Part shown: piece by piece, positions 33,131 to 54,298 of the stretch
Layout: the number at the start of each line of letters is the position of its first letter
Numbering within the stretch: position 1 is the stretch's first letter
Assembly: GCA_022495995.1 (NCBI GenBank)
Contig: JAFEMH010001247.1
Span: 372,001 to 436,000, forward strand
Reading direction: 5' to 3'
DNA from: Adenophora triphylla var. japonica
Taxonomy: Eukaryota > Streptophyta > Magnoliopsida > Asterales > Campanulaceae
DNA: 64,000 nt
The notes under the pieces: generated by a model
What the model was told of the DNA's origin: nothing
Seen by the model: the letters and a program-made list of their open reading frames with translations, nothing else
Databases searched by the model: none
Made by a program: the position numbers and the translations under genes

Positions 33131-36100
33131 AACTCAGCTATTCCAGCTTGTTAATATTAATTTCTATAGTTGTATAATAAATACTTCCTCCGTCCCATAA
33201 TGATAGTCCCATTTGATTATTCAAACATTTTAACAACTTATTTTCATTTCCATCACTAACCTTGGTGTGGTTTACTTATCACACCATTACTCCCTCTTCT
33301 TCGGTGGTTGTCTCTCATCCTCTTCCTCATTTGTTGACAATTTAGGAAGTTCAATGATTTTAACATAACAATTTTGAAATGGGACTATCTTTTTGGGACA
33401 AGCACAAATGGCAAATGGGAACATCTTTATGGGACTGAGGGAGTAGCAATCTTTGTTTAATACATTCATTATCAACCTAAAACCTCGATCCTTGGTTGGT
33501 TTGGTGGAGATTCAGAAATTTATTCTCAAGATCTAGATATTGAATAATCATTAGAATAGTTGTTTGGCAAAATTGCAAAAATGTTCAACCCCGGATAAAA
33601 AAGATCCTTGGCAGTCGTCAAGTGGTTACATTGTTGGTAAACCACTACAAGGTTCTGCAGGGAGGTGTTGGGATGTGGAGTCAAAACCACGGTTAAAGGA
33701 ATCAAGGAGGAAAATCGTTGAAGGGGACTGTCGGGATGGGCGACCGCCCAAGGTGATGATGGGCGACCGCCCAGTAGTACAGAAGGAATGGCTCGGGGAT
33801 TTTCTAGCTTGGGCGACCGCCCATGAGGTGATGGGCGACCGCCCATGTGACGGGGAGGATTTTCTGCAGCTGATTTGGTTTCCTACTTTGACAAGATCTC
33901 TTCCTTCTTTGGTGATTCCTTTTGGTAGTAGTATTTGAATAGAAAGGAGATTACTTTCTTGGGTAGGAATTCTTTTATTACTAGGATTTGATTTCGTGTT
34001 CCATATAAATACATGTGATAGCCTAGAAACAAATTGTGCTGTGATTGTAACATCGGAAAATATTATAATGAATATTTTGGCTTGGTAGCGCCCCCGGACG
34101 TAGTTGTTGTTGCAACGAACCGGGTTAACAATTCTTGTGTGTTCCTTTGTGTGTGATTTACTTTTCGTGTGTGTTGCCCCTATTACATCTCCATAGTTCG
34201 GTCCGTTTTCCGCTGCGTGGGTGTGATTTTCACAACAACTGGTATCAAAGCCTTTGGTTTTGTCGAATCATTGCTTGGGGTGTCTTTTGCTATGGATTTC
34301 TTGGGAGCTTTGGAGGATGGGAATAAGGTGGTGTTGATCGAAAAGTTTGATGGGACGGATTTCAATTTTTGGAAGACACAGATCGAGGATGTTCTATGGA
34401 ACAAGGATTTGTATCTACCATTAAAAGAAAAGCCGGATGACATAGAGGAAGCAAAATTCGAAATCTTGAATCGGAAAGCGTTAGGGCTTGTTAGGCAAAC
34501 GTTGACCAAGGATGTCGCGAAGAATGTTTTGGAGGCGAAGACTACCATGGAGATGTTGCAGATGTTGGCGAGCATGTACGAGGCACCATCGGCGAACTAG
34601 GCTCATCCGATGAGGAAGGCTGTTGAACATACGGATGGTGGAGGGCGTGGCGGCAACAAAGCATATAAGTGAATTCAAATCTATCATGCGACCCAACCGT
34701 CTTCCGTGGTCATACTCTTGATGACGAGGTACTAGCATTGATTTTACTTTCTTCTTTCTTTGGAAAGTTGGGATACGATCGCTATAGCGGTTAACGTTTC
34801 AACGGGAAAAGTGAAGCCGAAGTTTGCGGATGTCGTTGATGTGATTCTTGGCGAAGAAATTCGTAGGAAGAAGCGAGGGTGGGACATCGGGGCTAGCCTA
34901 AAGGTCGGTGAAAAGAGTAAGGGCATCAAGAAGGTGATTACTTGCTATGATTGTGGGGAGAAAGGGGCACTTTAGGAGAAGTTGTCCGGCGGTCGAGCAG
35001 GGCGAAGGAATTGAATGTTCTTTGAGGAGATGGCGAGACGTATTAATCTTGGGTGGGAGCTTCAACGGATTCGTGGGTTTTGGATTCGGGCTCGACGTTT
35101 CATTAAATGCACTAGTGCAGAAAGAATGGAGCAAGACGTTAGGGTGATTTTGGGGTTGTTCGTTTGGGAAACGATTATCTGTCAAGGTCATTGGAAAGGG
35201 GTAGTTCGGGTCAAAGCAACGGATGGGGCTTTTACGGCTACGTGATGTGCGACATATTCCGGATTTGAAGAGGAACTTGATTTCCATTAGGCAACTTGAT
35301 AAGGAGGGTTGTGTGGTGACCTTCGGTTGTGGGACATGGAAGGTAAACCGCGGAGCTAGCTTGGTGGCTCGTGGCGGCGTGGAAAATATGTTGTATACCA
35401 CATGCAACATGAGTCGTTGGGGGAAACGAAGGCGCATCCCAATGATGAATGGTGGTGGCCGAGATCGCCATGGTGGGAGAAATTTCACTAAACGGTATGT
35501 TGATAGAAATTGGGTGATGAAGTCGGCCGACGCGGAGCCAATTTGGTCAACATGGGAGCGGGATCTAGAACGGTGATGCGATGGGTTGCAAAGAACACAC
35601 AAAGGTTCCAAGCTTGTGATTGTGTGGGGCACGTGGATTCGCGCTGTTCAGGATCGATAGTTAGCAAGCAAGTGAGCGGGGATGTGCAGGGAGGATCATT
35701 CGGAATGAAGACTCGGAGCATGGTAGAACCGACAGTTATGTTGAAGCGTAGCTCAGCTTCAACTCACTTGGATAACTAGACAAGAGGCCGGGCGCTACCA
35801 ACGCATTAGCTGGCCACTGAAAATTGAGATTTGTTTGTTTCAAGAAAAGGTATCATGGATGGTTTGTCTCCAGGTGGGAGATTGTTGGGATGTGGAGTCA
35901 AAACCACGGTTAAAGGAATCAAGGAGGAAAATCGTTGAAGGGGACTGTCGGGATGGGCGACCGCCCAAGGTGATGATGGGCGACCGCCCAGTAGTACAGA
36001 AGGAATGGCTCGGGGATTTTCTAGCTTGGGCGACCGCCCATGAGGTGATGGGCGACCGCCCATGTGACGGGGAGGATTTTCTGCAGCTGATTTGGTTTCC

Positions 36101-37492
36101 TACTTTGACAAGATCTCTTCCTTCTTTGGTGATTCCTTTTGGTAGTAGTATTTGAATAGAAAGGAGATTACTTTCTTGGGTAGGAATTCTTTTATTACTA
36201 GGATTTGATTTCGTGTTCCATATAAATACATGTGATAGCCTAGAAACAAATTGTGCTGTGATTGTAACATCGGAAAATATTATAATGAATATTTTGGCTT
36301 GGTAGCGCCCCCGGACGTAGTTGTTGTTGCAACGAACCGGGTTAACAATTCTTGTGTGTTCCTTTGTGTGTGATTTACTTTTCGTGTGTGTTGCCCCTAT
36401 TACATCTCCATAGTTCGGTCCGTTTTCCGCTGCGTGGGCGTGATTTTCACAACAGGAGGTGGGAAATATTTAAAAGGAAAAAGAAAATAGGAAAGGACAA
36501 TTAGAACTAGAAATTAACTATGCTTAAAAAGGTGAGGTGCTGGAATTAGGAGATCCATCTTTTAAGATTTGGAGTATTAAAGCAAAGTTGACTCTCAGAG
36601 ATAGTTGTGTATCGTGGAATGTATTGAGCCAATTCGGTTAGCTCTTAACATAGAGTCTTGAGGATCTTTTTTCTTAAAAAGACATCTATTAATTGAGAGC
36701 TTTTTCCCAAACTTAAAGGATTTTGCTGTGGAAGCTAGATATAGTGATAATTCAGGACCGAAATTGAATATTGATTTATGTTAGATTAATAAATCAGATT
36801 GTTCAGTTGTCAGAAGTGAAATTGGGAAAATCATTGATTTCTAGAAGAAAACATTATAGAATCCAAGTTTTGATGCAACTTTAAATTTTTGATATAGTGT
36901 GGGGATTTATATCCAAGAGTAGTTAAGGTCGGAAATTTAGTTCTATGGAAAGAAATTGTGGTCGAAAAGGAAGGGTTCATTTTCAAATTGCTGTGCTGGG
37001 CGTAGTCATTCTTCCAAAATTGGTCAATCAAGAGCTGATTAGTGTGAAGTGAATATAAGGAAAAAAATTGGGACCTTTGTGAGTTATTTGACATAATTGA
37101 TGATTCATGTTTGGGTGATTTTTATACCCATTACCCCTATATTCATTGGTTTGGGTAATGTTTTTGATTATGTAGTCATTATGATATTTCTCTTACTTTT
37201 GTGCAATTTGAAAGATGTATATTTGAGTCAAAATCTAGTACTTAAAAGTTTACTTTCGAAGTAGTATTCTTTCTTTCGGAAATAGGGAGTCTTAAATTGC
37301 ATTTGTAAGAGGTATATATCTTAGATGGCTTTGAATATTGTTGCCTAATTTGGTTCAAGGGAGGCAATGTCAAACACTCTTTAAACACTTTAAATAAATA
37401 TTCCGTTGAAAATATAATTGTTACCCTCTCTTTTCGTATAAGGGTGTTTTTGTAATAAACTTCACAATGGTTGAAATAGGGTTTACGAGTAG

Positions 37493-37545
<53 letters not shown>

Positions 37546-38965
37546 TTGTGTGTTGCGCCGTAAGCTTGTCAGTGAATTGTGATCTGTCAGAGTAAGCAAA
37601 GGATTCAGTTATTGCTGCTTAAGCAGTTGAAGCTGAAAATGGTAACAGTTCTGTGATTTACAAGAATTCTGGCTGAGTAGCATTAATTTTGTCTTTGCTT
37701 GTTGATTCAATTAATTATTTTTTTGTTTATAATTGTAAGTGATTCATTTTTGTGAAATGGGTTTATGGTATTGTTCATAAAAATCATATCTTTCCAGCCG
37801 TCTGTTTAAGAAATCAGTATGTTTTAATTCTTTAAGTAATGTAGCAACTTCCTTGGCTCTTCTTCTTCAGAGGTCTTGAAATGGATTTTTTTTTTTTTTA
37901 GAGGGGGGGGGTTGGGGGTGTTCTCAGATTACTATACTTGTGGATTTGTCTATATCTCGTGCTGAATGTGTTACTCTTGGAATTTGACAGGGGGAGAGTG
38001 GAAACCCGACTGACACCGTCAGTCCAGTTATCTCTAAAGAGCCTGAATCACTAGTCGAGACGGGAAAAACTGCTGATCAGATGATGGGGAAAGATATATC
38101 ACTTGCAAATGTGGTTGATTCACCAAAGAGATCAAAGTTTCGTAGGAGAAAAAGATCGCAATCAGTAGCCCTTGCTTTAAAGAAACGGAAGCAAGAGAGA
38201 GCCTCACTTCCTTCACCAGCCGATAACAACAAGGTATGGCTTGGCTTTACATCTTGCAGTTTTATTGTTGTTTTTATCTATGGGGCTAACTTTTTTGGAG
38301 AATCCAAAAAGAGAAGCGAGAGTTTTTTTTTTTTTTTTTTTTGGGGGTGGGGGAACGGAGAGCATTGTTTTGATTGCAAAGATTGCTTAAAACATTGGCG
38401 GAGCTAGTACGGAGCTTATGTGGGAAATTGCCCTCGTTTGATTAGACTTTTTTTACTAGTGCAAATATTTCAAAAATTTTGGGGTTTTGGTATTTTATTG
38501 AAACTTGGCTCCGTTTGTGTAAAAAAAAAATGAACTATTTTTTTTGTCTCTTCTTATTAGCAAACGTTCCCCCCCCCCCCATTTGTAATTTGTGTGGCTC
38601 CATCACGGGCTTAAAACCAAGAAATTATCATTAATGGTGTGATCATGTTTTGAGTACAGGCTAAGAAGGTGTCGGGAGATGATGAGAGCTTGAAACTGAT
38701 GAGAAACAAGAAGGCAAAGAAGGAGAAAACGAAAGTTGTTTCCGAAGCAAACGGCCCCATAGTAGTACAAGAACCGGATCCAGAGGTAATAGACGAGAAG
38801 ACTATTAAGGCGGAGGCTGAAATGGTGAAGATTTGCAGAGCGTTAGACAAATTAGCAAGAATGAAGAGGGTTTTACTTGGCTTGCCTTGTTTCCAGAATG
38901 AATCGACATCCAAAGAGCAAACTGTTATGTATGTTCCTGTTGCAGAGGTGAAGGAAAAAGCATGA
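24608..38965 (+). CDS. PRHA: PHD-finger homeodomain transcription factor, PRHA/HAT3.1 family (9 coding exons)
   Basis: Coding exons inferred from GT-AG borders and frame: 24608-25032, 25874-26039, 26144-26267, 26651-27120, 27211-27444, 27539-27628, 31608-31658, 37991-38233 and 38660-38965. They total 2109 bases, or 702 residues plus stop, with no internal stop. The N-terminus is basic ([10 protein letters not shown] near residue 95), followed by the family motif [19 protein letters not shown] across the first junction. The PHD finger spans about residues 200-251 (CAKC at 200, FHQKC, GWFCKFC at its end). An acidic stretch ([13 protein letters not shown]) follows. The homeodomain lies about residues 461-520, with WFKNAR in the recognition helix carrying the expected W, F, N and R. 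The C-terminus is Lys-rich. The family comprises nuclear DNA-binding regulators; PRHA was described as binding a defence-gene promoter. Assignment to PRHA rather than HAT3.1 is less certain than family membership. Confidence 0.9.
26334..26590. mobile_element. Stowaway-like MITE in PRHA-like intron 3
   Basis: Ends are tactccctccgtcccaaaatgatcttcccac and its inverted copy gtaggaagatcattctgggacggagagagta. It makes up two thirds of the 383-bp intron (26268-26650), which splits the PHD finger. Confidence 0.85.
27985..30965 (+). pseudogene. L1-type LINE remnant, reverse transcriptase and zf-RVT region
   Basis: Broken + strand frames encode the LINE RT order: [19 protein letters not shown] plus [17 protein letters not shown], and the catalytic FADD box (QFADDTVLF at about 28,718). 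After an insertion at 29,072-29,625, further frames show the zf-RVT region ([24 protein letters not shown]). The 3' end has the LINE-like tail ttagtaatataattctctttt followed by an A run near 30,972. ORF1 is absent, so the copy is 5' truncated and inactive. Confidence 0.9.
29072..29625. mobile_element. Non-autonomous DNA element inserted in the LINE
   Basis: CCATAGTTGTCAAAGGCG at the left and the inverted CGCCTTTGACAACTATGG at the right form an 18-bp terminal inverted repeat. GC-rich cgcctttttg motifs recur at both ends and the middle is AT-rich. It interrupts the LINE frame. I did not find a clear target duplication, so the superfamily is unassigned. Confidence 0.75.
31057..31305. mobile_element. 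Stowaway-like MITE
   Basis: Ends tactcgctctgtctcataatgaatgtccat and atggactttcattttgggacggagggaata are imperfect inverted repeats. It lies just upstream of the acceptor of the 51-bp homeobox exon. Confidence 0.75.
31906..32172. mobile_element. Stowaway-like MITE
   Basis: Left ttactccttcctaagagtt and right ggaatggagggaataa, with inner similarity between 'gttccacatt' and 'aatgtggac', give a diverged TIR element inside intron 7 of the PRHA-like gene. Confidence 0.6.
33075..33147 (-). tRNA. tRNA-Asn(GTT)-like sequence, probably decayed
   Basis: The - strand carries the D arm TAGCTCAGTTGGTTAGAGC, the anticodon arm TGGCTGTTAACCA with anticodon GTT (33113-33111), and the T arm GGAGGTTCAAGCCCTCC. 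These match the plant nuclear tRNA-Asn layout. The 5' acceptor strand is GCTGGAA, but the bases after the T arm are TAGCGAT rather than a pairing TTCTAGC-type strand, as if three bases were lost. The acceptor stem therefore does not close. It lies antisense in intron 7 of the PRHA-like gene. Confidence 0.7.
33179..33448. mobile_element. Stowaway-like MITE
   Basis: Ends atacttcctccgtcccataatgatagtccca and tgggactatcttt...gggactgagggagtag are inverted. It lies 30 bp from the tRNA-like sequence. Confidence 0.75.
33666..34237 (+). repeat. 5' LTR of the non-autonomous Copia element
   Basis: TGTTGGG...CACAACA ends. Four copies of the self-complementary word TGGGCGACCGCCCA lie at 33737, 33760, 33810 and 33832 (steps 23, 50, 22). 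The TATA-like catataaata follows near 34002-34010. CTG lies 6 nt before copy 1 and CAGAA 6 nt after copy 2. The 3' LTR repeats the set at 35954-36062. Confidence 0.95.
34292..34600 (+). pseudogene. Truncated Copia gag in the non-autonomous element
   Basis: The ATG at 34292 starts a Tork/TNT1-like gag N-terminus ([18 protein letters not shown]) that stops after about 102 codons. Out of frame downstream are a zinc knuckle with a damaged His ([14 protein letters not shown], near 34,945) and a protease-like VLDSGSTFH (near 35,090). Confidence 0.8.
35883..36454 (+). repeat. 3' LTR of the non-autonomous Copia element
   Basis: It has the same length as the 5' LTR and matches it except one base seen by eye. 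It is preceded by a short purine-rich ggtgggaga tract suited to plus-strand priming. Confidence 0.95.
36460..37980 (+). other. Remainder of PRHA-like intron 7
   Basis: No gene is seen. A (TA)n(TG)n microsatellite lies at about 37,492-37,550. The rest is AT-rich intron without recognised elements. Confidence 0.5.
38394..38605. mobile_element. Possible hAT-like MITE in the last PRHA-like intron
   Basis: Left ttggcggagctag and right tgtggctccatcacggg are weakly inverted, of the type often seen in plant hAT-like MITEs. The terminal match is short. Confidence 0.3.
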
Positions 38966-39194
38966 AAGATATGCATTTCTATCTCTCTCCTTTTTCCTTT
39001 TTCTTTTTTAATGGGTAAGCAATTTTGTCTGGAATTTGATATCTTTTCCTTCTGTTTTTTGAAGGGGTATTTTGGGGACATGTCAGTTTTACAATGGGGA
39101 TTATATTTAATATAGATTTAAAGTTTTAGTGTAAAGATGGTTTTTCTGTGGATTTTATGATTCTTTGGCAATTTTTGGTATTTTTATAGACTCA

Positions 39195-39247
39195 TGCACA
39201 CACACATAGTGGGAGAGAGAGAGAGAGAAAAAGCACACACACATAGT

Positions 39248-39283
<36 letters not shown>

Positions 39284-39300
39284 AAGAGAGAGGGGAGAGT
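39195..39300 (+). repeat. (GA)n repeat between converging genes
   Basis: Two copies of 'acacacacatagtgggagagaga', the second extended into a long GA run. This is 3' flanking DNA of both host genes. Confidence 0.9.
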
Positions 39301-39694
39301 TTGACAAAAAAGAAACTTTTATGATTCTTTGGTAATTTTTGAGTCGAGATCACTCATACTTCTTATATGTATCACATTGTGCAACACAAGTGATCAAATG
39401 ACTATGTATCAATGATGATGTCAACTATAATAACTTATAACTGTTGAATTATGTGTGATACACAATGAATGTATAAAAGTGGTTTAGGTGATCTTGACTT
39501 GTAATTTTTGGTGTTTTTATAGATTCATACATACATAATATGGAGGAGAGAGAGAGAAATTGTTTGGACTCTGATCCTTCCTACTCATATGAACTAATTA
39601 TTCATCTCTCTGCATTTATCAAAATTGAAAGGGGGAAAATGAACAAAAATAAAAAATGATAATAAAAACTCTGACAGATTCTCTCTCTCTCACA

Positions 39695-42600: not shown

Positions 42601-43214
42601 TTGTTCCAAGAAATTGTATTGGATTCATCAATGGCGGAATCGTTTTCCGTTTTTGAATTCCCCATTATACTGTCAATCCCCTCTCCCATTTCCTCATCAA
42701 GCATCGATTCTGTATCGAAATCATCAGATAATTCCACAGAATTCGAATTCCATTGGGGGGAGGAAGAGGAGGAGGAATTGATTTCTACCGGGCTCAGACA
42801 GGGTTTTTCGCAGACCTTTGGCTCAACCAAGCAATTGGGATGTTCCAACAATGGTGGATGGAGTAAAAAACCCGAGTTTTCGATCACCTGAAAGGGCAAA
42901 ACTAGCTCCGGGAGCTCATTGAAGTAGTAGCTATTTTGTGGGGTGAATTTGGAGATTTTCTTGATGTGTTTGGTGGAGAAAACATTTGGACAAGCTGTGG
43001 AAAGAAGAGTGGCTGCCTCATTATAGGTTTGATTGGGTCTTTTTCGAGGAGTTCGAGTTTTTCGAGTCGAGATTGCTACCGGAGAATTGCTTGATTCGGA
43101 GAGAGTTGAAGACGGAGAAGAAGATGATTGTGAGATTCTACTAGATGTAGGTGAAGATTTGACTACTTCAATGGCAAAGCCATAAGCCCTTCCACCACTT
43201 AAGATAGTAGACAT
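39695..43214 (-). CDS. CIA2: CIA2/CIL-like CCT-domain transcription regulator (3 coding exons)
   Basis: Exons inferred on the - strand: 43214-42228, 41252-41109 and 39742-39695. Donors are CAT|GTAAGT and AAG|GTAAGG and acceptors are CTGCAG and TTGCAG; all joins are phase 0. The product has 392 residues, close to the Arabidopsis CIL length as I recall it. The N-terminus has a Ser-rich stretch and the family block [18 protein letters not shown], then [13 protein letters not shown]. The middle has acidic patches. The CCT motif spans the last two exons ([20 protein letters not shown] at about 341-360, ending in GRFV). Family members are nuclear proteins that raise expression of chloroplast protein-import and plastid ribosomal-protein genes in leaves. 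The last exon is only 48 bp including the stop. CIA2 and CIL cannot be separated from sequence alone. Confidence 0.88.
40540..40930. repeat. AT-rich repeat in CIA2-like intron 2 with 'atatccg' units
   Basis: Short units with 'gatatccagaaacct' and 'gatatccgaagcc' repeat about ten times. They are flanked by 'ctccataactatggaaaaacgtgttt' and 'ctccataagttacggaaaaatgcgttt', which are direct copies. The content is related to the repeats at 20.1 and 21.1 kb. Confidence 0.6.
41300..41602. mobile_element. MITE with internal tandem units, in CIA2-like intron 1
   Basis: The right end gtcgggacggagggagtata is a Stowaway-type end. The left end is not clear. Inside, a unit of about 66 bp ('aggagagagaatgttgtgagtg...') is repeated at least twice between 41,375 and 41,505. 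Confidence 0.6.
41599..42015. mobile_element. Second Stowaway-like MITE abutting the first
   Basis: Left tatactccctccgtcccagaccaaggg and right ccttggtccgaggaaaatggagta are inverted. It shares the terminal tata with the neighbouring element, so the two meet at a single TA-rich site. Confidence 0.7.
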
Positions 43215-43800
43215 CTTTATAAATAGATTTCAAAAACCCAATATCAAGATTCTATTTTTCAATACTAAATTTCAAGAAAATCTAGTAAAATCCATCAAAA
43301 AATCATCTCTTAAACATGCAAAATGAGTAGAATTGATAGAAATTTCAAAAACCCAAATCTCAAGAAAAACTAGTAAGCCAATACTAAGATTATGCCCAAA
43401 ATTCTACTTGAACACACCTCAAATACACTCAAGAAAGATGTCAAAACTGAAGAATTGGTTGTAAATTCGCAAACCCAATTCTAGATTCTACACAAAATGT
43501 CAAAATTGGAACAAAACCCTAAACCTTATTTGAAGAAAAAAAAACTATCTTTTTCTGAATAAATAAAAGTTGGGTTTCTCTTTTAAAAAGAGTAAGAAGC
43601 CAAAAGGTCAAATAATAAACTAAAGAAAGAAGATACTTAGATACCCAGAACCTTTCTTTAAAGAACCCAAAAAGGGGAATCCTAAAAACTTTATAAAAAT
43701 ACAATCTTTGAGACAGAAATTGGAATTAGGAAAAACAAAACCCAGAAGAGAATTGTACAGTACAAGTAACTGAAGAATCAAAAAGAGGAAAGTGAGTTGC

Positions 43801-43979: not shown

Positions 43980-44190
43980 GTTGAGTTATTGCAGGAGGCA
44001 GAGAGGACCTCTCTCTCACTCTCACTCTCACTCTCTCTCTGAAATGGGTGACAGAGGAAAGGGGAAAGTCACGGGGTCGGGAAACAGATGAAAGGAAATG
44101 AAGCGGTGTGAGCTCTCTGTACAAATAGCAGAGAGGATCGCAATCTCTCTCTCTACTTTCTCTCTCTGAATTGTGTGTGTTTGTGTGTGT
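43980..44190. repeat. (CT)n-rich stretch upstream of the CIA2-like gene
   Basis: Several CT/GA runs (44,010-44,040 and 44,143-44,168) and GT runs near 44,175 lie between the host promoter and the Ty3 LTR. Confidence 0.85.
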
Positions 44191-44437
44191 TTGTGTGAGA
44201 GAGTGACAAGTGAGGATTGGGGGTGAAATTGGGGGGAAGATTCAAGAGAATGGAAATGAGAACAGGGGAAGAGACAGAGACAGGGCCATCTTAGCAGTTT
44301 TTTGTTTAGGACCACTGTGTGAGTGTGTGAGCATTATTTTATACTGCTACTTTACTAAAATACCCCTAGTTTTAAATTACTCACAAAACTTTTTATTTTC
44401 ATTCTTGCTGATTTAGTTATTCAAAACACACGATATT

Positions 44438-44956
44438 TGACGAAGTACGGAAGCAATATTCGTGAATAGCAAGCGCTAAACACAAGAGTTCAGAAGCAAT
44501 GAACCCTAGAAAAGCAATAAACTGGAATCCACCAGAAAAAGATAAAAACCCTTCAAATTAAATCATCAAAACTGAGTTTAACAAAGCCATAAAAGTGTTT
44601 AAATACTTCCTTGAAACCCTAAAACGAAATAGCAAAGCAAAGACCAAAATACCCTAACTTAAAGTTCACAAAATCAGCAAAAACGGAAGCAAAAACGGAA
44701 TAAGGGAACTTGGACGACGACGCGAGGCGGGCGCTTAGCAGCATCTCAGGCGAACGCCTGGGAACCAGAAAGGAACGCCTTCGTCGAACCACCGTGAGGC
44801 GCGCGCCTAGGCAGGCATGAGGCGGCCACCTGGAGTCCAGAAACTTGTTGCTGGGACGGAGCTTGCTGAGGCGTGCGCCTAGTCTGTGATGGGGCGCCCG
44901 CCTGGAAACCAGTGGCTGAATCTCCCTGTTGCTGTGCTCCATGTTGTCCTGCATCA
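44438..44956 (-). repeat. Ty3 element LTR, - strand copy
   Basis: The - strand reads TGATGC at 44956 after a purine tract (GGTGGAGGAGAC) and ends in GTCA at 44438, 519 bp. It contains six GC-rich near-palindromes of AGGCGNNCGCCT type at 44725, 44748, 44797, 44820, 44869 and 44892 (steps 23, 49, 23, 49, 23). A TATA-like tatttaaac lies near 44,600 on the - strand. Its promoter points toward the CIA2-like gene. Confidence 0.75.
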
Positions 44957-45256
44957 GTCTCCTCCACCTCTAAAGAACTCGACCCCGAGTTCACATCGGG
45001 ATAAAGAACTCCATCCGCGTGGTACTCATAAATATCAGCAACATTGAACGTGTTAGAAATGTTCAAATCATCGGGAAGAGCCACCGCATAAGCATTGTCA
45101 TTAATTTTTCTGGTCACTTTGAAAGACCCATACTTGCGAGGTTGCAGCTTCTTGTCCCTCATAGGAGGGAGCTCATTAGGCAACTCATCAGAAAGCAACT
45201 CCTGAGACCCTGAAAGAAGTTCTTCAATATCTCTCGGCATCTCGATCTCGAAAAAA
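44746..45256 (-). pseudogene. Ty3 pol fragment, - strand, with RT and integrase core deleted
   Basis: The frame joins a segment upstream of RT ([20 protein letters not shown]) directly to the integrase C-terminus ([20 protein letters not shown]). The + strand copy has both segments about 2.5 kb apart, so this copy carries a large internal deletion. The reading continues into the LTR. At about 45,256 it meets the oppositely oriented copy. Confidence 0.85.
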
Positions 45257-45260
45257 TCTG

Positions 45261-45938
45261 TTGAGAGCACACTGTTATGTTAAGAACAAGGCATGTATTA
45301 TGATTATTGATAATGGTTGTACTGAAAATATAGTTTCGCAGAAATTGGTTGAATTTTTTGGGTTAAAAATTGAACCTCATGAGAAACCTTATAGTTTGGG
45401 ATGGGTGAATAAAGGTTCAGAACTCAGGGTATCACGGACTTGCAGGGTTCCTATTTCTATTGGCAAACATTATAAGGAGGAGGTTGTTTGTGACGTTCTG
45501 AATATGGACGTCTGTCATATATTGCTTGGTCGCCCTTGGCAGTATGACCATGACATTACTTATCGGAGAAAGGATAATGTGCTGATGTTCACATGGGGTA
45601 AACATAAAATTGCTATAGCTCCTGTACTATGTTTTGAGAAACAGGTTGAGAAGGAAAAATCGATCGTGATGCTTATACATAACGATAAAGATCTGACATC
45701 AGCTATTGAAGAAGCAGTGTACTTTTGTTCGATAGTGATTAAGGGGCTGTTGGGTTCTGTTAGTGTGGAGATCGGGATGCCGAGAGATATTGAAGAACTT
45801 CTTTCAGGGTTTCAGGAGTTGATTTCTGACGAGTTGCCTAATGAGCTCCCTCCTATGAGGGACATTCAGCATCAGATTGACTTAATTTCAGGAGATAGTC
45901 TGCCAAACCTCCCGCATTATCTCATTAGCCCTAAGTAG
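45261..45938 (+). CDS. Ty3 pol: protease region
   Basis: A retropepsin-like segment has [11 protein letters not shown], where most enzymes have D-S/T-G, followed by [12 protein letters not shown] typical of plant Ty3 proteases. A connector to RT contains the same [11 protein letters not shown] block as the - strand copy. A stop near 45,936 separates it from the RT frame by about ten codons. Confidence 0.85.
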
Positions 45939-45968
45939 TACGAGATACTTAGAGAGCAGATTGAAGAC

Positions 45969-46814
45969 TTGCTGCGAAAGGGATTTATCAGGGAGAGTAT
46001 GAGTCCATATGCAGTACCAGTGCTTCTTGTGCCAAAGAAGGGCAATCAGTGGCGTATGTGTGTTGATAGCAGAGCCATCAGCAAGATAACCATCAAGTAC
46101 AAATTTCCTATCCCTCGTTTAGAGGACATGCTTGATGAGTTATCCGGTTCTAAGGTGTTCACAAAGTTGGATTTGCGCAGTGGGTACCATCAGATTCGGA
46201 TCAGACCAGGGGATGAGTGGAAAACAGCTTTCAAGAGCAAGGAGGGACTTTATGAGTGGCTGGTCATGCCATTCAGACTATCCAATGCCCCTAGCACTTT
46301 CATGAGGCTAATGAACCAGGTATTCCGACCTTTTATTGGCTCTTTTGTCGTAGCCTATTTTGATGATATCCTGATTTATAGTAAAGATAGAACGGCACAT
46401 TTGGAACACCTTAGACAAGTGTTACAGGTTTTAAAAGATAATCAGTTGTATATCAATCTTAAGAAGTGTACATTTTGCACCAACAAATTGCTTTTTCTGG
46501 GATTTGTTGTTGGTGAGGATGAGATTCAGGTTGATGAGGAGAAAGTGAGGGCGATAAGGGATTGGCCGGCCCCAAAATCAGTCACGGAGGTGCATAGTTT
46601 TCATGGCTTGGCTACCTTTTACAGGAGATTTGTGCGTGATTTCAGCATCATTACTGCACCTATTACCGAGTATCTGAAAAAAGGCAAATTTCAGTGGGGT
46701 TTTGAGCAAGATCAGAGTTTTGCCCTCATCAAGAAAAAACTTTGCGCTGCACCAGTTCTTGCTCTAGCAGATTTTGACAAGAGATTCCAGTGGAATGTGA
46801 TGCTAGTGGTGTAG
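45969..46814 (+). CDS. Ty3 pol: reverse transcriptase
   Basis: The motifs [29 protein letters not shown] and the catalytic YFDDILIYS are all present, followed by the thumb (FLGFVV). [11 protein letters not shown] stands where PFGLSNAP is usual. The frame is lost near the start of RNase H. Confidence 0.93.
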
Positions 46815-47376
46815 GGATAGGGGCTGTTCTCTCACAAGAAAAGCGGTCGACTGCTTTTTTCAGCCGAGAAGTCGAGCGAGGCTCTCGGCTGCTGAGTACT
46901 TATGACCAGGAGTTTTATGCAGTCTTTCGGGCTTTGCGACAGTGGGAGCATTATCTTGTTCAGAGGGAGTTTATTCTGTTTTCTGATCATCTTGCTTTGC
47001 TCTTGCTTTGAAGTTCTTGCATAGCCAGAAAGTGATAAATAAAATGCATGCCCGCTGGGTTAGTTATTTGCAGAAGTTTCCTTTTATTATTCAGCATAAA
47101 TCAGGGGTTCAAAACAAAGTTGCAGATGCTTTGAGCAGAAGGGCTTCTTTGTTGATCACTTTATCCCAGGAGATTATGGATTTCGACTTGCTAAAAGAAT
47201 TGTATGAGGATGATGTAGATTTTAAGGAGTTATGGGCGAAGTGTGTGGGCAAACATCCTAGTGCAGATTTTCACATTCGGGATGGGTTTCTGTTTAAAGG
47301 GAATCAGTTGTGCATTCCTATTTATTCCTTACAGGAGAAGCTGATTCGAGATTTACATGGTGGGGGCCTTAGTTGA
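46790..47376 (+). pseudogene. Ty3 pol: RNase H and integrase zinc-binding region, frameshifted
   Basis: Two frames (46790-47011 and 47008-47376) encode RNase H ([14 protein letters not shown], ending KVADALSRR), then the region before the integrase zinc finger. A frameshift near 47,010 and a TGA after 47,376 break the protein. Confidence 0.85.
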
Positions 47377-47379
47377 CAT

Positions 47380-47778
47380 TTGGGACGAGACAAGACTATT
47401 GCTGATTTGGATGAGCGATATTTCTGGCCTCATCTGAGGAAGGATGCGAGTTCGATTGTCAGAAGATGCTATACCTGCCAAGTTTCTAAGGGTCAGTCTC
47501 AAATTACTGGTCTTTATTTTCCTTTACCTATTCCTGATGATATTTGGCTGGATCTATCCATGGACTTTGTATTGGGTTTGCCTCGTACACAGCAGGGCGT
47601 GGATTCTGTTTTTGTGGTGGTGGATCGGTTTTTCAAAATGTCCCATTTTATTGCTTGCACGAAGACTGCGGATGCATCTAATATTGCAAAGTTGTTTTTC
47701 AGAGAGATTGTGCGACTGCATGGAGTTCCTAAGTCCATTACCTCGGACAGGGACACCAAATTCCTGAGTCATTTCTGA
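47380..47778 (+). CDS. Ty3 pol: integrase zinc finger and core
   Basis: CYTCQ of the zinc-binding motif is followed by the core with SMDFVLGLP and TSDRDTKF, giving two of the three catalytic acids. The rest of the core is in broken frames to about 47,940. Confidence 0.88.
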
Positions 47779-47943
47779 ATTACTTTGTGGCGTATGCTCG
47801 GTACTTCGCTGAATAGGAGTTCTACAGCACATCCGCAGGCGAACAGACAGACGAAGGTTACTAACAGGACATTAGGAAATATGATTAGAAGTGTTTGTGG
47901 AGACAAGCCAAGCAGTGGGATTTAGCTTTGCCACAGGTGGAGT

Positions 47944-48639
47944 TTGCTTATAACAGTGCAGTGCATTCGACTACAGGGAAATCACCTTTTTTTCTTGGTT
48001 TATACGTCTGTTCCTAGGCATGTAGTGGATATGGTACCGTTACCTAACGGTCGTGGTGTGAGTCAAGCTGCTGAAAATATGGCCAAGGATGTGCAAGCCG
48101 TCAAGGAAGCTGTCAAAGCTAAGCTAGAGGCTACAAAGTTGAAAAATAAGGCTGCTGCTGACAAAAAGAGGCGGGAGAAGGTTTTCGCAGTTGGGGATGA
48201 TGTCATGGTGTTCCTACGGAAGGAGCGTTTTACTGTAGGTTCTTACAAGAAGCTGCAACCTCGCAAGTATGGGCCTATCAAAGTGACCAGAAAAATTAAT
48301 GACAATGCTTATGTGGTGGCTCTTCCCGATGATTTGAACATTTCTAATACGTTCAATATTGCTGATATTTATGAGTACCACGCGGATGGAGTTCTTTACT
48401 CGGATGGAGTTCTTTATCCCAATGAGAACTCGTGGTCGAGTTCTTTAGAGGTGGAGGAGACTGATGTAGGAGGCTGCAACCCAGGCGCACGCCGCAGCAA
48501 CCACCAGGCGGCCACCCCACTGAGCCTCAACAGGCGAGATTCTACTGGTGTCCAGGCGACAGCCTCATGCCAGTCCATGCGAGCGCCTCACCATGGCGTC
48601 AACAAGCAACCAAATACTGGATCCCAGGCGGGCGCATGA
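47944..48639 (+). CDS. Ty3 pol: integrase C-terminus reading into the LTR
   Basis: The C-terminal domain ([27 protein letters not shown]) is followed by [12 protein letters not shown]. There is no clear chromodomain. The frame runs across the purine tract and about 175 bp into the LTR, as known for CRM-type Ty3 elements; that lineage is therefore my suggestion. A short '[10 protein letters not shown]' duplication is present. The LTR-encoded tail is composed largely of the palindrome words. Confidence 0.8.
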
Positions 48640-48935
48640 TCCTTCCCAGGTGGGCGCCTTAGTGACGGGTTGTTTGTTTCCTTTTTCCGTTTTTGCTGTT
48701 GTTTGAAACTTTAAGTTGGGATATTTTGGTCTTTGCTTTGTTATGTCGTTTTAGGGTTTGAAGAAAGTATTTATACTTTGTTTAAAGAGGTGGAACTCAG
48801 TTTTTATGATATATTTTTCAAGAGTTTTCTCTTATTTTCTAGTGGATTTCAATTTATTATTGTCTAGGGTTCATTGCTGGTGAACTCTTGTATTTAGCGT
48901 TTGCTATTCACGAATATCGCTTCTGTTTTACGTCA
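48462..48935 (+). repeat. Ty3 element LTR, + strand copy
   Basis: It starts TGATGTAGG after GGTGGAGGAGAC and ends TTTTACGTCA, 474 bp. Palindrome words begin at 48483, 48506, 48554, 48577, 48626 and 48648 (steps 23, 48, 23, 49, 22). CTG stands exactly 6 nt before the first of each pair (48474, 48545, 48617). A TATA-like gtatttatac is near 48,769. Bases after the end (tgagg) do not match those outside the other LTR (atatt). Confidence 0.78.
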
Positions 48936-49368
48936 TGAGGAGACGTGTTAAAGGCATTATCTAAAATCGAGTATGGACAAACCTTATCTATAGCACACCA
49001 ATTAATTTTAAGATATAATCTAAAACTTAAAGATAATAAAATTAAAGTGATACTCATATTTCATTTTCCTTATCTAGGGCAAAATGGTAAGAAAAATTAT
49101 GTAATCCTAATCATGGGCAAGCATGGATATCCCTGATATTGGATTTTTTGTAAGTATGTCACTCTAGTATACTCCCACCTGCAAACATTTCATTCAACAC
49201 CAAAGAGATATAATTATGCGAAGCCTTTTTCTTATCCAGTGACATGTCAATACCTGATTGGATACTCTAGATTCTAGGGCTGACATGGTATGCCTTTTAT
49301 TGGTTGTTGGATTATCACGTGTATCAAGAAACTTAAAAGCTTTTTATTTATTTCCTCTAGATATAGTA
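48936..49368. other. Intergenic, no recognised feature
   Basis: AT-rich with no supported gene or terminal repeat. Confidence 0.4.
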
Positions 49369-49604
49369 TACTCCCTCCCGCCACAAATCACACAGTTGAT
49401 CAACTGAATTAATTTTTGATCATGATTTTATGAATGTCTAGATATTCCTATGCAATTCTAAAAAAAGTTATTGATAGTATTTCTAATGGTGAAGCAATAA
49501 CAATTTTTAAAATTTCAAAAAAATATCTAGATATTCATAAAATCATTGATCAAAAATTCACACAGTTGATCAACTGTGTGAATTATAATGGGACGGAGGG
49601 TAGT
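49369..49604. mobile_element. Palindromic MITE
   Basis: Ends tactccctcccgcc and gggacggagggtagta enclose a nearly complete inverted repeat. At the right a perfect palindrome CACAGTTGATCAACTGTG (49561-49578) is itself matched at the left arm. Confidence 0.75.
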
Positions 49605-50054
49605 ATATTACAACTTTCTATTTTGATTCATTCAAAAATTAATGTCACATTTTTGAAAAAAAAAAATGTTCTAAAGTAATTTTATTGTTCTACAAGTAAT
49701 ATACAACTATTAAAGCAATTTCTTAATATTGAAAAGTTAATTAAAATATTTATTATTAAATAATGGAAGTGTTATTTTAATTTGTGTAGGGATTAAAAAA
49801 AAAGGAAAAAACAGAGAGTAATGATTAGAAGGCATTGTTTTGTTTGGGGTTTGTGGTGGGCTTAAATATGTGGCATATGGCAATCCTACGTTAGGATGTT
49901 TATCTTCAATGGCTTGAGATTACATTGCTCCAAATTATGGATGATTTTTTGATTAGTGGGTCCCAAATTTTATCAACTTGTTAGTACATTGGTTTTCACT
50001 CATATTTTCATCCGTTTTATTATACCTTATCATTGGTGTTTTATTGTAGAAAAA
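49605..50054. other. Intergenic, no recognised gene
   Basis: AT-rich sequence without open frames that look real. Confidence 0.4.
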
Positions 50055-50095
50055 CTAGTATTACCCACCGTGCGGGTCGCACGATGACAGTACAA
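50055..50095 (-). mobile_element. Candidate Helitron 3' terminus
   Basis: On the - strand a hairpin CGTGCGACCCGCACG is followed about 11 bases later by CTAG, then T. This matches the Helitron 3' end (hairpin, short spacer, CTRR, A/T insertion site). The 5' TC end was not located and there is no Rep/helicase. Confidence 0.4.
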
Positions 50096-50540
50096 AAATG
50101 ATTGTATAAAAATTAAAGAAATGATGAATTGCCCCCTCCCCCCCCCCCCCCAACAACCCCACACCACCCCCTAAAAGAACACATTCTACTCACTTTCATC
50201 TTTCTACCTAGCAAAATAAAGAAAGGATGAATTAGCCTCTTAGTACAATAGTTGTATCGCCCCGATTCAAATATAGCAAAATAAATACTGAGGTAATGAG
50301 GCATTTTCACAAACAGATTGTGAGTGAAAACGGAGAAAATAAGAACAACAAAACAACCAACAACATACCATCATAACCGTACAAATGCCATATTCACATA
50401 AACATTTAACAATAGTTATTTGACAGCAAAAAGTTCTACAAAAATATAAATCAAGCAAAATAGACATTATCAAGCAAGCAATAGCACAGTACAAAAAATA
50501 TTTGTTAGTAAATTCACCATTTAGCTTAATACTTAAAATT

Positions 50541-50905
50541 AATACTCCCTCAGTCCCACTTCAATTGAGCCATGGCATCTTTGCACGCTTTTTAAGATTT
50601 TTTTTAAAAATGAGTAAAGAATTGAAAGTGGGTAGAAGATTAGAGGAGAGAGAATGTAAAAGTTAAAAATATTTAATAGGAGAGAGAATGAGTGGGAGAA
50701 ATAGTAAGTTAATAATTGATTTTTTTTTGTAAATATGCTAAAATTATAAGGGTATAATGAATGGTTTTTTTGTAAATATATAAACATTATCAGGGTATAA
50801 ATGTCCGAAACACTGTTCACTTCTTTCCATTTATGAAATGGCTCATTTGAAGTGGGACGTCCCAAAAAGAAAAGTGGCTCAATTGAAGCGGGACGGAGGG
50901 AGTAA
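50541..50905. mobile_element. Stowaway-like MITE
   Basis: atactccctcagtcccacttcaattgagcca at the left is matched by tggctcaattgaagcgggacggagggagta at the right, an inverted repeat of about 30 bp. Confidence 0.9.
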
Positions 50906-51258
50906 TTATTTTGTAACTGTCAACATAGTAAAATTCAATTTTGTTAATAAAAATTATTAATTATTTATATTAGTTAGTAACCGGTGTAGGAAAGTTTTTT
51001 TTTTGTTTTTTTCAACTTTAAATCTAGACCGCTCTTTGCCTTTTGAGTGATTAAATCTGAACCACTCTTTGTGTGGCGGTTAGAGAGGTAGTAACCGTTG
51101 TAGCAGAGTGGGAAGTTAAAAACAAATTTATTTTTCATATTCAATCCTAGCCACCAGTTATGTTTTCTCAAACTCAATCTTGACCATTGATTGTGTGGCG
51201 GTTAGATGTAAGCTCTATTGTATTATAGATGTCAATTAGGTTTTCAAAAGATAGTGAA

Positions 51259-51572
51259 TACTCCCTTTTTTCTCGCCTGATACTTCACCATTTTGGTGAA
51301 GCACTTAAATTAAGAAAATTGATGAGTGGGAGAAGGGTTGTAAGAGAGAATAAGTGAGTAAATATGACAAGTGGGGCCCACAATTTAAATATGTGAGAAA
51401 AAAAGTTAATAGATATAACAAGTGGGCCTCACAATTTAAATATGTGAGAGGAAAAAGTGAGTGTGGTTGACAAATGGGACCCACATTTATTACCATTTTA
51501 GAAAATGTAAAGCTTCTATTGGGACACCTATTTAGATAAAAGGTGAAGCTTCGAACGGGACGGAGGGAGTAT
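51259..51572. mobile_element. Stowaway-like MITE
   Basis: Left atactccctttttt...gcctgatacttcacc and right ggtgaagcttcgaacgggacggagggagtat form imperfect inverted ends. 'aagtgggcccacaatttaaatatgtgag' is directly repeated inside. Confidence 0.75.
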
Positions 51573-52120
51573 TACATAAGTCTTGTATTAACTTATCAAT
51601 GTATGTTGAATGAATGTGATATACTACTTATTTTTATCTTGCTTATACATATCATGATAAACTTATACTAAAACCTATTTTCATATATAAAATTGCAACA
51701 CTTTTTTAAATAAATTAGAAATGAAAGTGTAACATTTATATTTTTTATGAGACAAACAATTAAAGTCTATGAGAGTCTTATGACCAAGAGAACCCAAGTT
51801 TTTGCATAAATGTGCTACATTCAATTTGGAGTCACTACAACTGGATGCCTCATATTCAATCTCCTTCATACAGATGTACTATGGTGGTGTAGCTCCGAGA
51901 TTGGTGGGGGGATTCTACTCTTAATTAATTGATCCAACGGCTATCAATTTGAAATAACCGTTAGGCAGTCAGATGACAATGTAATATGGATAAAATGCTT
52001 GATACATACTAGCTAAATATACTACTGATATATGGCAAAAAAACTTATTGATTTTATTTAATTAAAAATAAAAATGAATTGTTATTTTGAAACAATTGAG
52101 TACTTACTTATGATCATCCC

Positions 52121-52368
52121 TAGTGGCGAAGCCCACATGTATGAGATGGAGATCATTAGACTTTCTTAATTTTTGAAATTGTGACTTTAGTACCTATTTT
52201 TTTTTTTTTTTAAGGTATATCAAAAATACTATTTTATCAATTTCAGCCCCTTCATTTGTGGTATAATTTATATCGTATTATCCGCCAAATTTCTATATGA
52301 AAAATATAACTTTTGATTCCTAAACAATCTTGACTTCCTTAGATTATTATTTTTTAGCTTCACCACTA
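52121..52368. mobile_element. Short TIR element
   Basis: TAGTGGCGAAGC at the left and GCTTCACCACTA at the right are inverted copies with one mismatch. No coding capacity. Confidence 0.55.
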
Positions 52369-52392
52369 ATCATCTTATACTTTATTATAATA

Positions 52393-52667
52393 TACTCCCA
52401 ACTACTCATTATGATTTTCTTTTTCAACATGGGGATTAAGAAATATTAATATAATAAGAGGAGAAAAAAATAAGTGAAGGAGGTATTGTGATTATAGAAA
52501 GTAAAATATGAGAGACAATGAGTGAGAGGAATATTGTTGTGAATATGACAAATGTATCTCATTAAATATAAAAATAATATAAATTTGTTATTTTGAAACG
52601 TTATAAATCGAATGGGAATACCAAAATTGCAAATTATCTGAAATCGAGCGGAACGGAGGGAGTATTT
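52393..52667. mobile_element. Stowaway-like MITE, diverged
   Basis: Left tactcccaactactcatt and right gagcggaacggagggagta; the right end is well preserved and the left is weak. Confidence 0.55.
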
Positions 52668-52729
52668 AACTTATAGTAACTTGTAAGGAAAGTTGATAAT
52701 GAGATAAGAGAATCTAAGAAAATGTAATT

Positions 52730-53451
52730 TTGAAGCTAATAAGTGAAGTACGTGGCCTTGTGCGAGGCAACCATATGAGCATAGTGAGAGAGTGGGAGGC
52801 CGGGAGAAAAGCTAAGCAAAAGTCCATAATTTTCCAAAATATTTCTTTAGATATTTATTCAAGTGTCCCTTTAATGAAATCTTTAATATTTGGAATATAT
52901 AGAAATCCACTCACTTTTAATTCTATTATTTTATATTGCATGGATATTTGCTCAATAAAAATAGTACATGGATACTGCCTAGTTGTAGAATAATTGGCCA
53001 CACATTAATTATGCCTTGTAGTTGTGTCCCTTGCAATTGGTACGCTAGACGTTTCCACACTCCTATATTAACCAATACTAGTGAGTAACTCGTCGAGATT
53101 CAATGGACATATATTAAAGCTTATTATTACTTATTGCTATAATTTGTAATTTCATTTAAATAAATGAAAACAATATGTTAGGTTTATATCCAACAATAAA
53201 AAAGTGAGACGATCATTTTGGGACATAGGGAGTATCCTGTACACACAGAAAATTACATTATTACATTCAGACTAACTCCATTTAGCCTTATGTGTTGGGA
53301 TGGCCAAATATATTTTGGTCATAAAAATCTATTTTTATTATAAAAATAAAAATGTGTGTACACTTAATCGCCGATTTTTTAAGAGATGGAGAAGATATAA
53401 TTTACACAAACTTGCGTAATGATTTGAGCTTATAAAATTTACACAAACTTG
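52730..53451. other. Intergenic, no gene supported
   Basis: An 87-codon open frame at 52730-52993 has no recognisable features. A lone MITE end (tgggacatagggagta) lies near 53,220. 'tttacacaaacttg' is repeated directly before the Copia LTR (53,401 and 53,439). Confidence 0.4.
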
Positions 53452-54298
53452 TGTTGGAAATGGGTAACGGAAAGTTAAGTTTGACTTAACGTGGACCCAA
53501 GATTCTAACGAAGTTCGTTAATTCGTTAACGAGAATTGTTACAAAATATATTCTACATTTGTTGTAGATTACTAAACTCATTTAATGTCTCAAAACCATT
53601 TAGGGTGAATGAGAATTAATGACAAGTGTTTTTTGTAACTTAACGAGAGTTAAATAAAGGGTTAAAGTTAACTTGAGTTGACTTGGACTGATCCAAATTG
53701 GTTTTGGGTCACAACTGTTCCCAAAAGGTTTTCGTGACCTTTCAGTTCTGGGCTTAAGCGCGATCGCGCTCCAGCCTAGAGCGGCCGCGCTGATTTAAGT
53801 AAAATCTTGGCTTGGTCTCGGCATGAGAGAGCGGTCGCGCTCAAGGCAAGAGCGGCCGCGCTAGTACGCAGAATCTGAACAGTTTTGGCACCTCTTGGAG
53901 TGAACAACCATGAACCCTTTAACTTTCTTTAAATAGTTTCCCTCCGAATTTCAATTTAGACATACAGTCATTTAAGCCTCTTTACCCTCTAGTGAGATAG
54001 TTTAACATAGCAAAATCATATCATCTTGTTGCATCAAATCCTTTCAAGTCCAAAGTTCAAAACATTGTGTTGTTCGTTAGATTAGTTATATTGGAGTGCT
54101 CCTTATAACTAATAGTAAAGTCGTTTTATCTTACGAGAGTTTTGTTATTCAACCGTAAGCACCTGTGCGGGACAAATAACTCTTACGGAGATTGTATATA
54201 ATACAAGACTCGACTTGTTTTCTAGTTTTCCCAATCTCCGTTAAATTCTTCGTCAGTTTTTCTGTTAAGTTCTTGAGAAGCCATACTAAAGTCCAACA
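53452..54298 (+). repeat. 5' LTR of an interrupted Copia element
   Basis: The ends are TGTTGG and CCAACA, 847 bp, 40 bp upstream of an intact gag ATG. GC-rich palindromes end at 53770, 53791, 53841 and 53862 (steps 21, 50, 21); the first is the perfect AGCGCGATCGCGCT. TTCTG lies 6 nt before the first and CAGAA 6 nt after the last. A TATA-like tttaaatag is near 53,922. The primer site after the LTR is not the usual initiator-Met sequence. Confidence 0.75.

What the first reader, a model, noticed from the sequence alone, without database searches (positions are those of the whole stretch)
33737..53862. Same spacing code of GC palindromes in the U3 of three unrelated LTR retrotransposons
Seen directly: TGGGCGACCGCCCA starts at 33737, 33760, 33810 and 33832 (steps 23, 50, 22; repeated in its 3' LTR at 35954-36062). 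AGCG..CGCT words end at 53770, 53791, 53841 and 53862 (21, 50, 21). AGGCGNNCGCCT-type words start at 44725, 44748, 44797, 44820, 44869 and 44892 (23, 49, 23, 49, 23), and in the other Ty3 LTR at 48483, 48506, 48554, 48577, 48626 and 48648 (23, 48, 23, 49, 22). The host elements are two different Copia families and one Ty3, with unrelated words but the same two-step spacing, always upstream of a TATA-like box. In an AT-rich genome this is unlikely by drift. Steps near 21-23 bp are about two helical turns, so paired sites face the same side of the DNA. I know of no named description of this arrangement, and I infer a shared reader (protein complex or nucleic-acid structure).
Basis: partly seen in the sequence, partly recalled or inferred. 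Interest (0 to 1): 0.92.

Follow-up and report, generated by a model that had tools for sequence, protein, structure and literature searches.

The report
Shared enhancer grammar in plant transposons

Summary
All listed words and steps are present. In the window, 13 of 13 GCGNNCGC pairs 15-60 bp apart lie at 20-24 or 48-52 bp, against none in 200 shuffles. Genome-wide (2.48 Gb): TGGGCGACCGCCCA 52,702 times (reversed control 0), AGGCGNNCGCCT 24,651 sites (control 509), AGNGCGNNCGCGCT 30,201 matches (control 1,173).

Corrections: the words are not unrelated; all share the core GCG-NN-CGC. A simple 72-bp duplication does not suffice: spacers of successive units are near random (0.61 versus 0.55 shuffled), words 0.88 identical.

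New: CTG lies exactly 9 bp before the first word of each pair in 62 of 78 pairs from 13 mutually unalignable groups, and in 29 of 30 exact pairs of a genome listing, 14 of 15 in stretches not read before. The same words occur in Copia and Ty3 elements and in a hAT-linked array. Related LTRs carry different word sets.

Best reading: a directional composite protein-binding enhancer module shared across superfamilies; protein unknown. Kin: Sirevirus repeated motifs, Tnt1 U3 modular evolution.

The parts
33666..34237 (+). Copia1 5' LTR (short copy with 1.65-kb interior; TSD GGAGG; iMet-like PBS follows)
   Evidence: 99.8% identical to 35883-36454; ends and TSD read
33728..33730 (+). CTG element, 9 bp 5' of word 1 (again at 35945 in the 3' LTR; absent before word 3)
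   Evidence: statistics
33737..33845 (+). Copia1 array: four TGGGCGACCGCCCA words at 33737, 33760, 33810, 33832 (steps 23/50/22)
34002..34012 (+). TATA-like box of Copia1 (CATATAAATAC)
35883..36454 (+). Copia1 3' LTR, same array at 35954-36062
44725..44903 (-). Ty3 array, minus-strand copy: six words (sense steps 23/49/23/49/23)
44766..44768 (-). CTG (sense) 9 bp 5' of the first word of the third pair
44838..44840 (-). CTG (sense) 9 bp 5' of the first word of the second pair
44910..44912 (-). CTG (sense) 9 bp 5' of the first word of the first pair
45939..46814 (+). Ty3 reverse transcriptase (RVT_1), defines the superfamily of the plus copy
   Evidence: PF00078 E=2.5e-39
48483..48659 (+). Ty3 array, plus copy: six partly degraded words (steps 23/48/23/49/22), CTG at 48474, 48545, 48617
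53452..54297 (+). Copia2 5' LTR (approximate ends read by eye; no partner LTR in the window)
   Evidence: downstream part 95% identical to L024 over 339 bp
53748..53750 (+). CTG element, 9 bp 5' of Copia2 word 1 (absent before word 3)
53757..53862 (+). Copia2 array: AGCGCGATCGCGCT, AGAGCGGCCGCGCT, AGAGCGGTCGCGCT, AGAGCGGCCGCGCT (steps 21/50/21)
54290..55408 (+). Copia2 gag, interrupted near 55402 by a Sirevirus-like element
   Evidence: PF14223 E=2.6e-25

Best explanation
The arrays are a composite, directional enhancer module in the U3 of LTR retrotransposons: CTG - 6 bp - word 1 - 7 to 11 bp (rarely 5 or 6) - word 2, repeated every ~72 bp (2 to 4 pairs in the loci read). Each word is a near-palindrome around GCG-NN-CGC. 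I infer that a host-encoded DNA-binding protein binds each word as a dimer; two dimers sit about two helical turns apart on one face of the DNA; CTG, 15-16 bp from the first word's centre, is contacted by the same complex or a partner. Related proteins with different flank preference would explain the few word sets (A TGGGCGACCGCCCA, B AGNGCGNNCGCGCT, C AGGCGNNCGCCT). Many families use the same reader, and a family can change the whole set (A to B, or to the differently spaced GCACGASTCGTGC), by recombination between elements or by selection. Most likely effect: transcriptional activation of the element. Shown: words, spacing, CTG, sharing between superfamilies, set changes between related LTRs. 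Inferred: protein, dimerisation, activation, how sets change.
For: Copy number against reversed controls. Of 66 adjacent steps under 400 bp among 100 listed A words, 30 are 21-23, 12 are 50-52, 15 are 71-74 and 9 other (recounted). 30 loci fall into 13 groups with no blastn hit at E 1e-3 outside the words, all with the same kind of steps. CTG at -9 of word 1 in 62 of 78 pairs; no other offset from 3 to 30 has more than 3; group-weighted 9.71 of 13, against a maximum of 1.90 for any 3-mer and offset in 200 mononucleotide shuffles. The rule was written down before the set B loci L047-L054 were fetched: 13 of their 17 pairs fit (my count from the list). In the listing, 29 of 30 first and 0 of 30 second words have it; 15 of the 30 pairs lie in stretches not read before, 14 of 15 fit. 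Genome-wide 14,704 CTG-N6-A, reversed pattern 0. Words kept while spacers are near random. Same words across superfamilies: A in Copia1, upstream of a Ty3-type gag (PF03732) and beside a hAT transposase (PF05699); C in the window's Ty3 and in a Copia (PF14223, PF22936). Set change: Copia2 (B) and L024 (GCACGASTCGTGC) 95% identical over 339 bp downstream.
Against: No protein, expression, accessibility or methylation data. No known plant factor with this composite site could be named. CTG at -9 is absent in 16 of 78 pairs, among them the second pair of Copia1 and of Copia2. Set C words are weaker (core intact in 31 of 44). Groups were defined by U3 similarity only; some may be one lineage, and LTR ends were established only for Copia1. 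The 78 pairs include near-identical loci (L039/L045, L011a/L040), and of the 15 'unread' pairs several look like LTR partners or near copies of read ones. Most loci were picked because they carry an exact word, so word conservation is partly ascertained; CTG and spacers were not selected for. The genome-wide wrong-offset control (CTG-N5) could not be run. Copia1's own gag match is below Pfam's cut-off (E=0.037). Activation rather than silencing is a guess.
Confidence: 0.62

Rival explanations
1. The same DNA-reading geometry, but the reader belongs to silencing or anti-silencing: a host factor that guides DNA methylation to the words, or an element-encoded factor that keeps them open (as recalled for VANC and its motif arrays). 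Word sets would change to escape or follow that factor.
For: Words are CpG-dense and sets differ as wholes between related LTRs, as expected of an arms race; in maize Sireviruses palindromes are small-RNA hotspots (PMC5311732, passages); variable CpG-rich U3s were proposed as a moving target in Del elements (PMC4029996, passages).
Against: A purely repressive site should be lost, not multiplied with exact spacing in 13 groups. An element-encoded reader would be expected to be family-specific, yet one word is shared by Copia1, a Ty3-type element and a hAT-linked array, and Copia1 with its 1.65-kb interior has no room for a full pol.
Confidence: 0.2
2. The palindromes act as RNA or single-strand DNA hairpins (small-RNA source, genome dimerisation or packaging), and the spacing reflects hairpin geometry.
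For: Copia1 and Copia2 arrays fold better than 200 dinucleotide shuffles (z -2.96 and -2.93); word 1 pairs with word 2 in the Copia1 model.
Against: The Ty3 piece does not fold better than shuffles (z 0.54; 137 of 200 at least as good). The central NN of word 1 complements that of word 2 in 3 of 78 pairs; positions 3/12 are complementary in 38 of 56 first and 35 of 56 second words. CTG would need a partner: CAG 6 bp after word 2 in 9 of 78. The hAT-linked array is outside retroelement replication.
Confidence: 0.1
3. Common descent without present function: an ancestral U3 module or 72-bp tandem duplication was copied between families by template switching, and what is seen is its remains.
For: Period ~72 bp in all groups; spacer identity between successive units above shuffled in several loci (L039 and L045 0.74 vs 0.57; L037 0.68 vs 0.56; L046 0.69 vs 0.56); shared flanks around different arrays look like recombination mosaics.
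Against: Words (0.88) and CTG are kept while spacers average 0.61 against 0.55 shuffled; in Copia1, Copia2 and the minus Ty3 copy the spacers are no more alike than shuffled. Descent may explain how the module spread, not why words and offsets are kept.
Confidence: 0.08

Closest known systems
Sirevirus repeated motifs (RM boxes; Bousios et al. 2010, PMC2829016; abstract, passages and one part of the text read)
   Same: Palindromic, CpG-rich repeated words in the LTR upstream of the TATA box, with words differing between families.
   Different: RM core is CGG-CCG (12 of 13 RMs; Tnd-1 lacks it) and the paper calls RMs Sirevirus-specific and absent from classic Copia elements. Here the core is GCG-NN-CGC, in Copia and Ty3 elements and a hAT-linked array, with a 20-23/48-53 bp rule and CTG at -9. 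The passages read give no spacing rule and mention no CTG.
Tnt1/Retrolyc1/Retrosol subfamilies with different U3 (PMC1838419, passages)
   Same: Related elements keep the rest and differ in the U3, described as modular evolution.
   Different: There U3 types are described within one superfamily of elements; here the same word sets recur in unrelated groups and superfamilies.
Retroviral and SV40 72-75-bp enhancer repeats (recalled, not tested)
   Same: Tandem ~72-bp units with several factor sites upstream of the promoter.
   Different: No sequence relation looked for or claimed; here spacers have diverged and mainly words and offsets are kept.
VANC motif arrays of VANDAL transposons (recalled; one search gave listings only)
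   Same: Short word arrays that differ between families, read by a sequence-specific protein.
   Different: VANC is, as recalled, element-encoded and family-specific; these words are shared between groups.
Del (Ty3) 5' CpG islands (PMC4029996, passages)
   Same: Variable CpG-rich LTR segment.
   Different: The terms palindrom* and spacing occur 0 times in that text.

Membership tests
Sirevirus RM boxes | Core CGG-CCG signature | tested here: not met
   Core is GCGNNCGC in sets A-C, CGASTCG in the fourth set; definition from PMC2829016
Sirevirus RM boxes | Located in a Sirevirus (PPT AGGGGGAG, AT/TG att site) | not tested
   PPT and att site not examined; the window's Ty3 (RVT_1), the hAT-linked array and the Retrotrans_gag element are not Copia by Pfam
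Sirevirus RM boxes | Palindromic repeated word upstream of the TATA box | tested here: met
   25 of 30 loci with a TATA-like box downstream in the piece read, 5 without
Tnt1-type U3 modular evolution | Related elements with conserved rest and different U3 sets | tested here: met
   Copia1 group has sets A and B; groups 0, 2, 3, 5 have A/B and GCACGASTCGTGC members; only LTR parts compared, coding parts not
Simple 72-bp tandem duplication | Successive units alike throughout | tested here: not met
   spacers 0.61 vs shuffled 0.55 (group means), words 0.88; some loci clearly above shuffled
Hairpin/RNA element | Base pairing preserved between the paired positions | tested here: inconclusive
   core positions always or nearly always complementary in sets A and B, but NN complementary in 3 of 78 pairs and positions 3/12 in 38 of 56 and 35 of 56; no covariation model was built
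Hairpin/RNA element | Folds better than shuffled sequence | tested here: inconclusive
   z -2.96, -2.93, +0.54 in three pieces
Transcription-factor enhancer | Bound by a nuclear protein and activates transcription | not testable with these tools
   no binding or expression data

The most novel reading that the evidence does not exclude
A genome-wide regulatory code shared by transposable elements of different superfamilies: a small set of interchangeable DNA word sets, each with its own fixed geometry (CTG-N6-W-N8-W, ~72-bp period for the GCGNNCGC sets; 19-bp step for GCACGASTCGTGC), read by a small family of host proteins not yet known to bind such sites, with elements repeatedly switching sets as a whole in a contest over transcription.
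Probability: 0.45. Interest if true: 0.9.

Novelty: new variant of a known kind. Interest (0 to 1): 0.78.

Why it matters
If a handful of word sets with one geometry sits in the U3 of many unrelated transposons, one host factor could set the activity of a large part of a 2.5-Gb genome. That makes the question of who reads transposon promoters directly testable: the module is a ready-made bait with built-in negative controls (CTG offset, 5-bp insertions, word swap). It also supplies natural swap experiments in closely related LTRs, such as Copia2 against L024, to separate activation from silencing, and extends palindromic LTR repeats beyond Sireviruses.

Tried and rejected
Pure chance: rejected. 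Recent 72-bp duplication alone: rejected. RNA hairpin: weakened, not excluded. One universal 22/50 rule for all palindromic words: rejected, because GCACGASTCGTGC (41,586 sites, control 25) uses a 19-bp pair step, with CTG at -9 in only 1 of 27 first or single words; the best upstream signal there is a half-site-like AACGA at -18 to -16, sum 1.6 against a shuffle maximum of 1.50. Search for related elements in viral contigs by the Sirevirus-like RT and the Ty3 RT: nothing confirmed. Six word strings in the full text of 5.39 million papers: no paper holds any. Bousios et al. 2016 (PMC4728375) is not held and was seen only through other papers' passages. Paper searches that bear on novelty. From the listed titles, abstract starts and opened passages I saw no description of this arrangement; subscription journals and preprints are not covered, so this is not proof of novelty. 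Not obtained: genome-wide counts of CTG-N5-word and of TGGGCGNNCGCCCA (tool busy), so the wrong-offset control rests on the 78 pairs and the 30 listed pairs. Other plant genomes could not be searched.
Full report
Observation. In the 64-kb window 23 GCGNNCGC sites occur (200 dinucleotide shuffles: mean 0.69, maximum 3), and all 13 pairs 15-60 bp apart are 20-24 or 48-52 bp apart, while no shuffle has any such pair. Copia1 (33666-36454) has LTRs 99.8% identical and TSD GGAGG. Its Copia assignment rests on LTR, PBS and a weak gag match (PF14223 E=0.037, below cut-off); 'Tork/Tnt1-like' is recalled, not tested. Copia2 has PF14223 E=2.6e-25; the Ty3 has RVT_1 E=2.5e-39. The two Ty3 arrays belong to related, partly inverted copies and count once.

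Scale. The window lies in a 2.48-Gb genome. TGGGCGACCGCCCA (set A) occurs 26,569 + 26,133 times, with 0 for the pattern read backwards. AGGCGNNCGCCT (set C) has 24,651 sites, control 509. AGNGCGNNCGCGCT (set B) has 15,429 + 14,772 matches, control 574 + 599; self-complementary forms count on both strands. GCACGASTCGTGC has 41,586 sites, control 25. The tool calls its counts lower bounds. In 20 ten-kb stretches taken at fixed places, three GCGNNCGC arrays were met (two in L011, one in L017).

Spacing. Of 100 listed set A words, 66 adjacent steps are under 400 bp: 30 at 21-23, 12 at 50-52, 15 at 71-74, 9 other (recounted). In 30 loci (window pieces included) forming 13 single-linkage groups with no blastn hit at E 1e-3 outside the words, steps are 20-23 and 49-53 in sets A and B, and 22-23 and 48-49 in set C, with a few exceptions (19, 30, 32, 72). 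The short step differs a little by set while the sum stays near 72 bp.

Third element. Aligning all 78 word pairs on word 1, CTG starts exactly 9 bp upstream in 62 of 78; at every other offset from 3 to 30 it occurs at most 3 times. Weighted by group the score is 9.71 of 13; the best of all 3-mers and offsets in 200 mononucleotide shuffles is 1.90. I first saw the rule, so those loci are not an independent test. The rule was written down; of the 17 pairs in the set B loci fetched afterwards, 13 fit (counted). CTG at -9 of word 2: 2 of 78. In the listing, 33 of 100 words have CTG at -9; of 30 exact pairs, 29 first and 0 second words. Half of these pairs (15) lie in stretches already read; of the other 15, 14 fit, and several of those look like LTR partners or near copies of read ones. 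Genome-wide, CTG-N6-A occurs 14,704 times, reversed control 0. The wrong-offset genome-wide control could not be run.

What is conserved. Core GCGNNCGC is intact in 53 of 56 first and 55 of 56 second words of sets A and B, and in 15 of 22 and 16 of 22 of set C; most loci were selected for carrying an exact word, so this is partly ascertained. In sets A and B word 2 has fewer forms than word 1 (outermost positions complementary in 55 against 44 of 56), though not at positions 3/12 (35 against 38). Spacers of successive units are 0.61 identical on group average against 0.55 for shuffled spacers, words 0.88; in Copia1, Copia2 and the minus Ty3 copy spacers are not above shuffled, in others (L039 0.74 against 0.57) they clearly are. 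Between groups, spacers are 0.554 against 0.538.

Across superfamilies. Set A: Copia1; an array (L011b) with a PF03732 gag in an ORF starting 1.2 kb downstream, taken by position to be the same element and Ty3-type (the link of PF03732 to Ty3 is recalled); and an array 0.55 kb 3' of, and antisense to, a hAT transposase end (PF05699), beside AACCGG-rich repeats, with the array part found again in L040 at 97% over 593 bp. Set C: the window's Ty3 and a Copia (L031: PF14223 and PF22936). Superfamily was not established for the other groups.

Word-set exchange. With words masked, four groups contain LTRs with a GCGNNCGC set and LTRs with the GCACGASTCGTGC set: L039/L055 (82% over 211 bp downstream, 94% over 35 bp upstream), L001/L009 (78% over 342 bp downstream, 83% over 63 bp upstream), L044/L058 (92% over 49 bp upstream), Copia2/L024 (95% over 339 bp downstream, no upstream match). 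Copia1's group holds set A (Copia1, L002) and set B (L047, L048) members; L002's link is a 32-bp match. Modular U3 evolution is known for Tnt1 relatives (PMC1838419, passages); the sharing of one set between unrelated groups is the new part.

Mechanism. Directional, composite, spacing-locked sites, kept in otherwise diverging sequence and shared by retroelements and a hAT-linked array, are best explained by a host DNA-binding complex. The hairpin reading predicts complementary centres and consistent folding; centres are not complementary and one of three pieces does not fold better than shuffled. Silencing or anti-silencing readers remain open. Steps near 22 (2.1 turns), 50 (4.8) and 72 (6.9 turns at 10.5 bp) keep sites roughly on one face; this is arithmetic, not a test.

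Known kin. Sirevirus RM boxes (PMC2829016; abstract, passages and one part read) are palindromic, CpG-rich, upstream of TATA, mostly with a CGG-CCG core, and were reported as absent from classic Copia elements. The present module fails the core test and is not confined to Copia, but works like them. Palindrome clusters of Sireviruses attract small RNAs (PMC5311732, PMC10760457, passages). The latter also reports a Sirevirus palindrome in maize Helitrons, a parallel to the hAT-linked array here.

Verdict. A real, genome-wide composite U3 module that I did not find described, a new variant of the known palindromic LTR repeats; the protein that reads it is unknown.

Noticed in passing
L011:1-1400: hAT transposase C-terminal part, then a four-word set A array in antisense (CTG at -9 for one of its two pairs; both in the near-identical L040), then AACCGG-rich repeats: the module linked to a DNA transposon.
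   Followed up: partly
whole genome; L009, L024, L055-L062: A fourth abundant word, GCACGASTCGTGC (41,586 sites, control 25), with a 19-bp pair step, CTG at -9 in only 1 of 27 first or single words, and half-site-like AACGA about 18 bp upstream.
   Followed up: partly
window 55402-56800 and 63128-63345: A Sirevirus-like Copia (label recalled) nested in Copia2, with AACCGGTT/AACCGAT words near 55.6 kb and again downstream of pol (steps 35, 24, 21, 21, 14, 47, 49).
   Followed up: partly
window 3830-9916 and 56747-63057: Two related Copia elements in opposite orientation, 69-77% identical in the blocks found.
   Followed up: no
window 44438-45255 and 45260-48950: A Ty3 copy next to an inverted, internally deleted partial copy; flanking parts 81-95% alike, while the array part between them was not aligned once words were masked.
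   Followed up: no
L050-L054, window 33846-33853: Several arrays have TGACG or ACGTC just after a second word, a possible bZIP-type site (motif name recalled, not tested).
   Followed up: no
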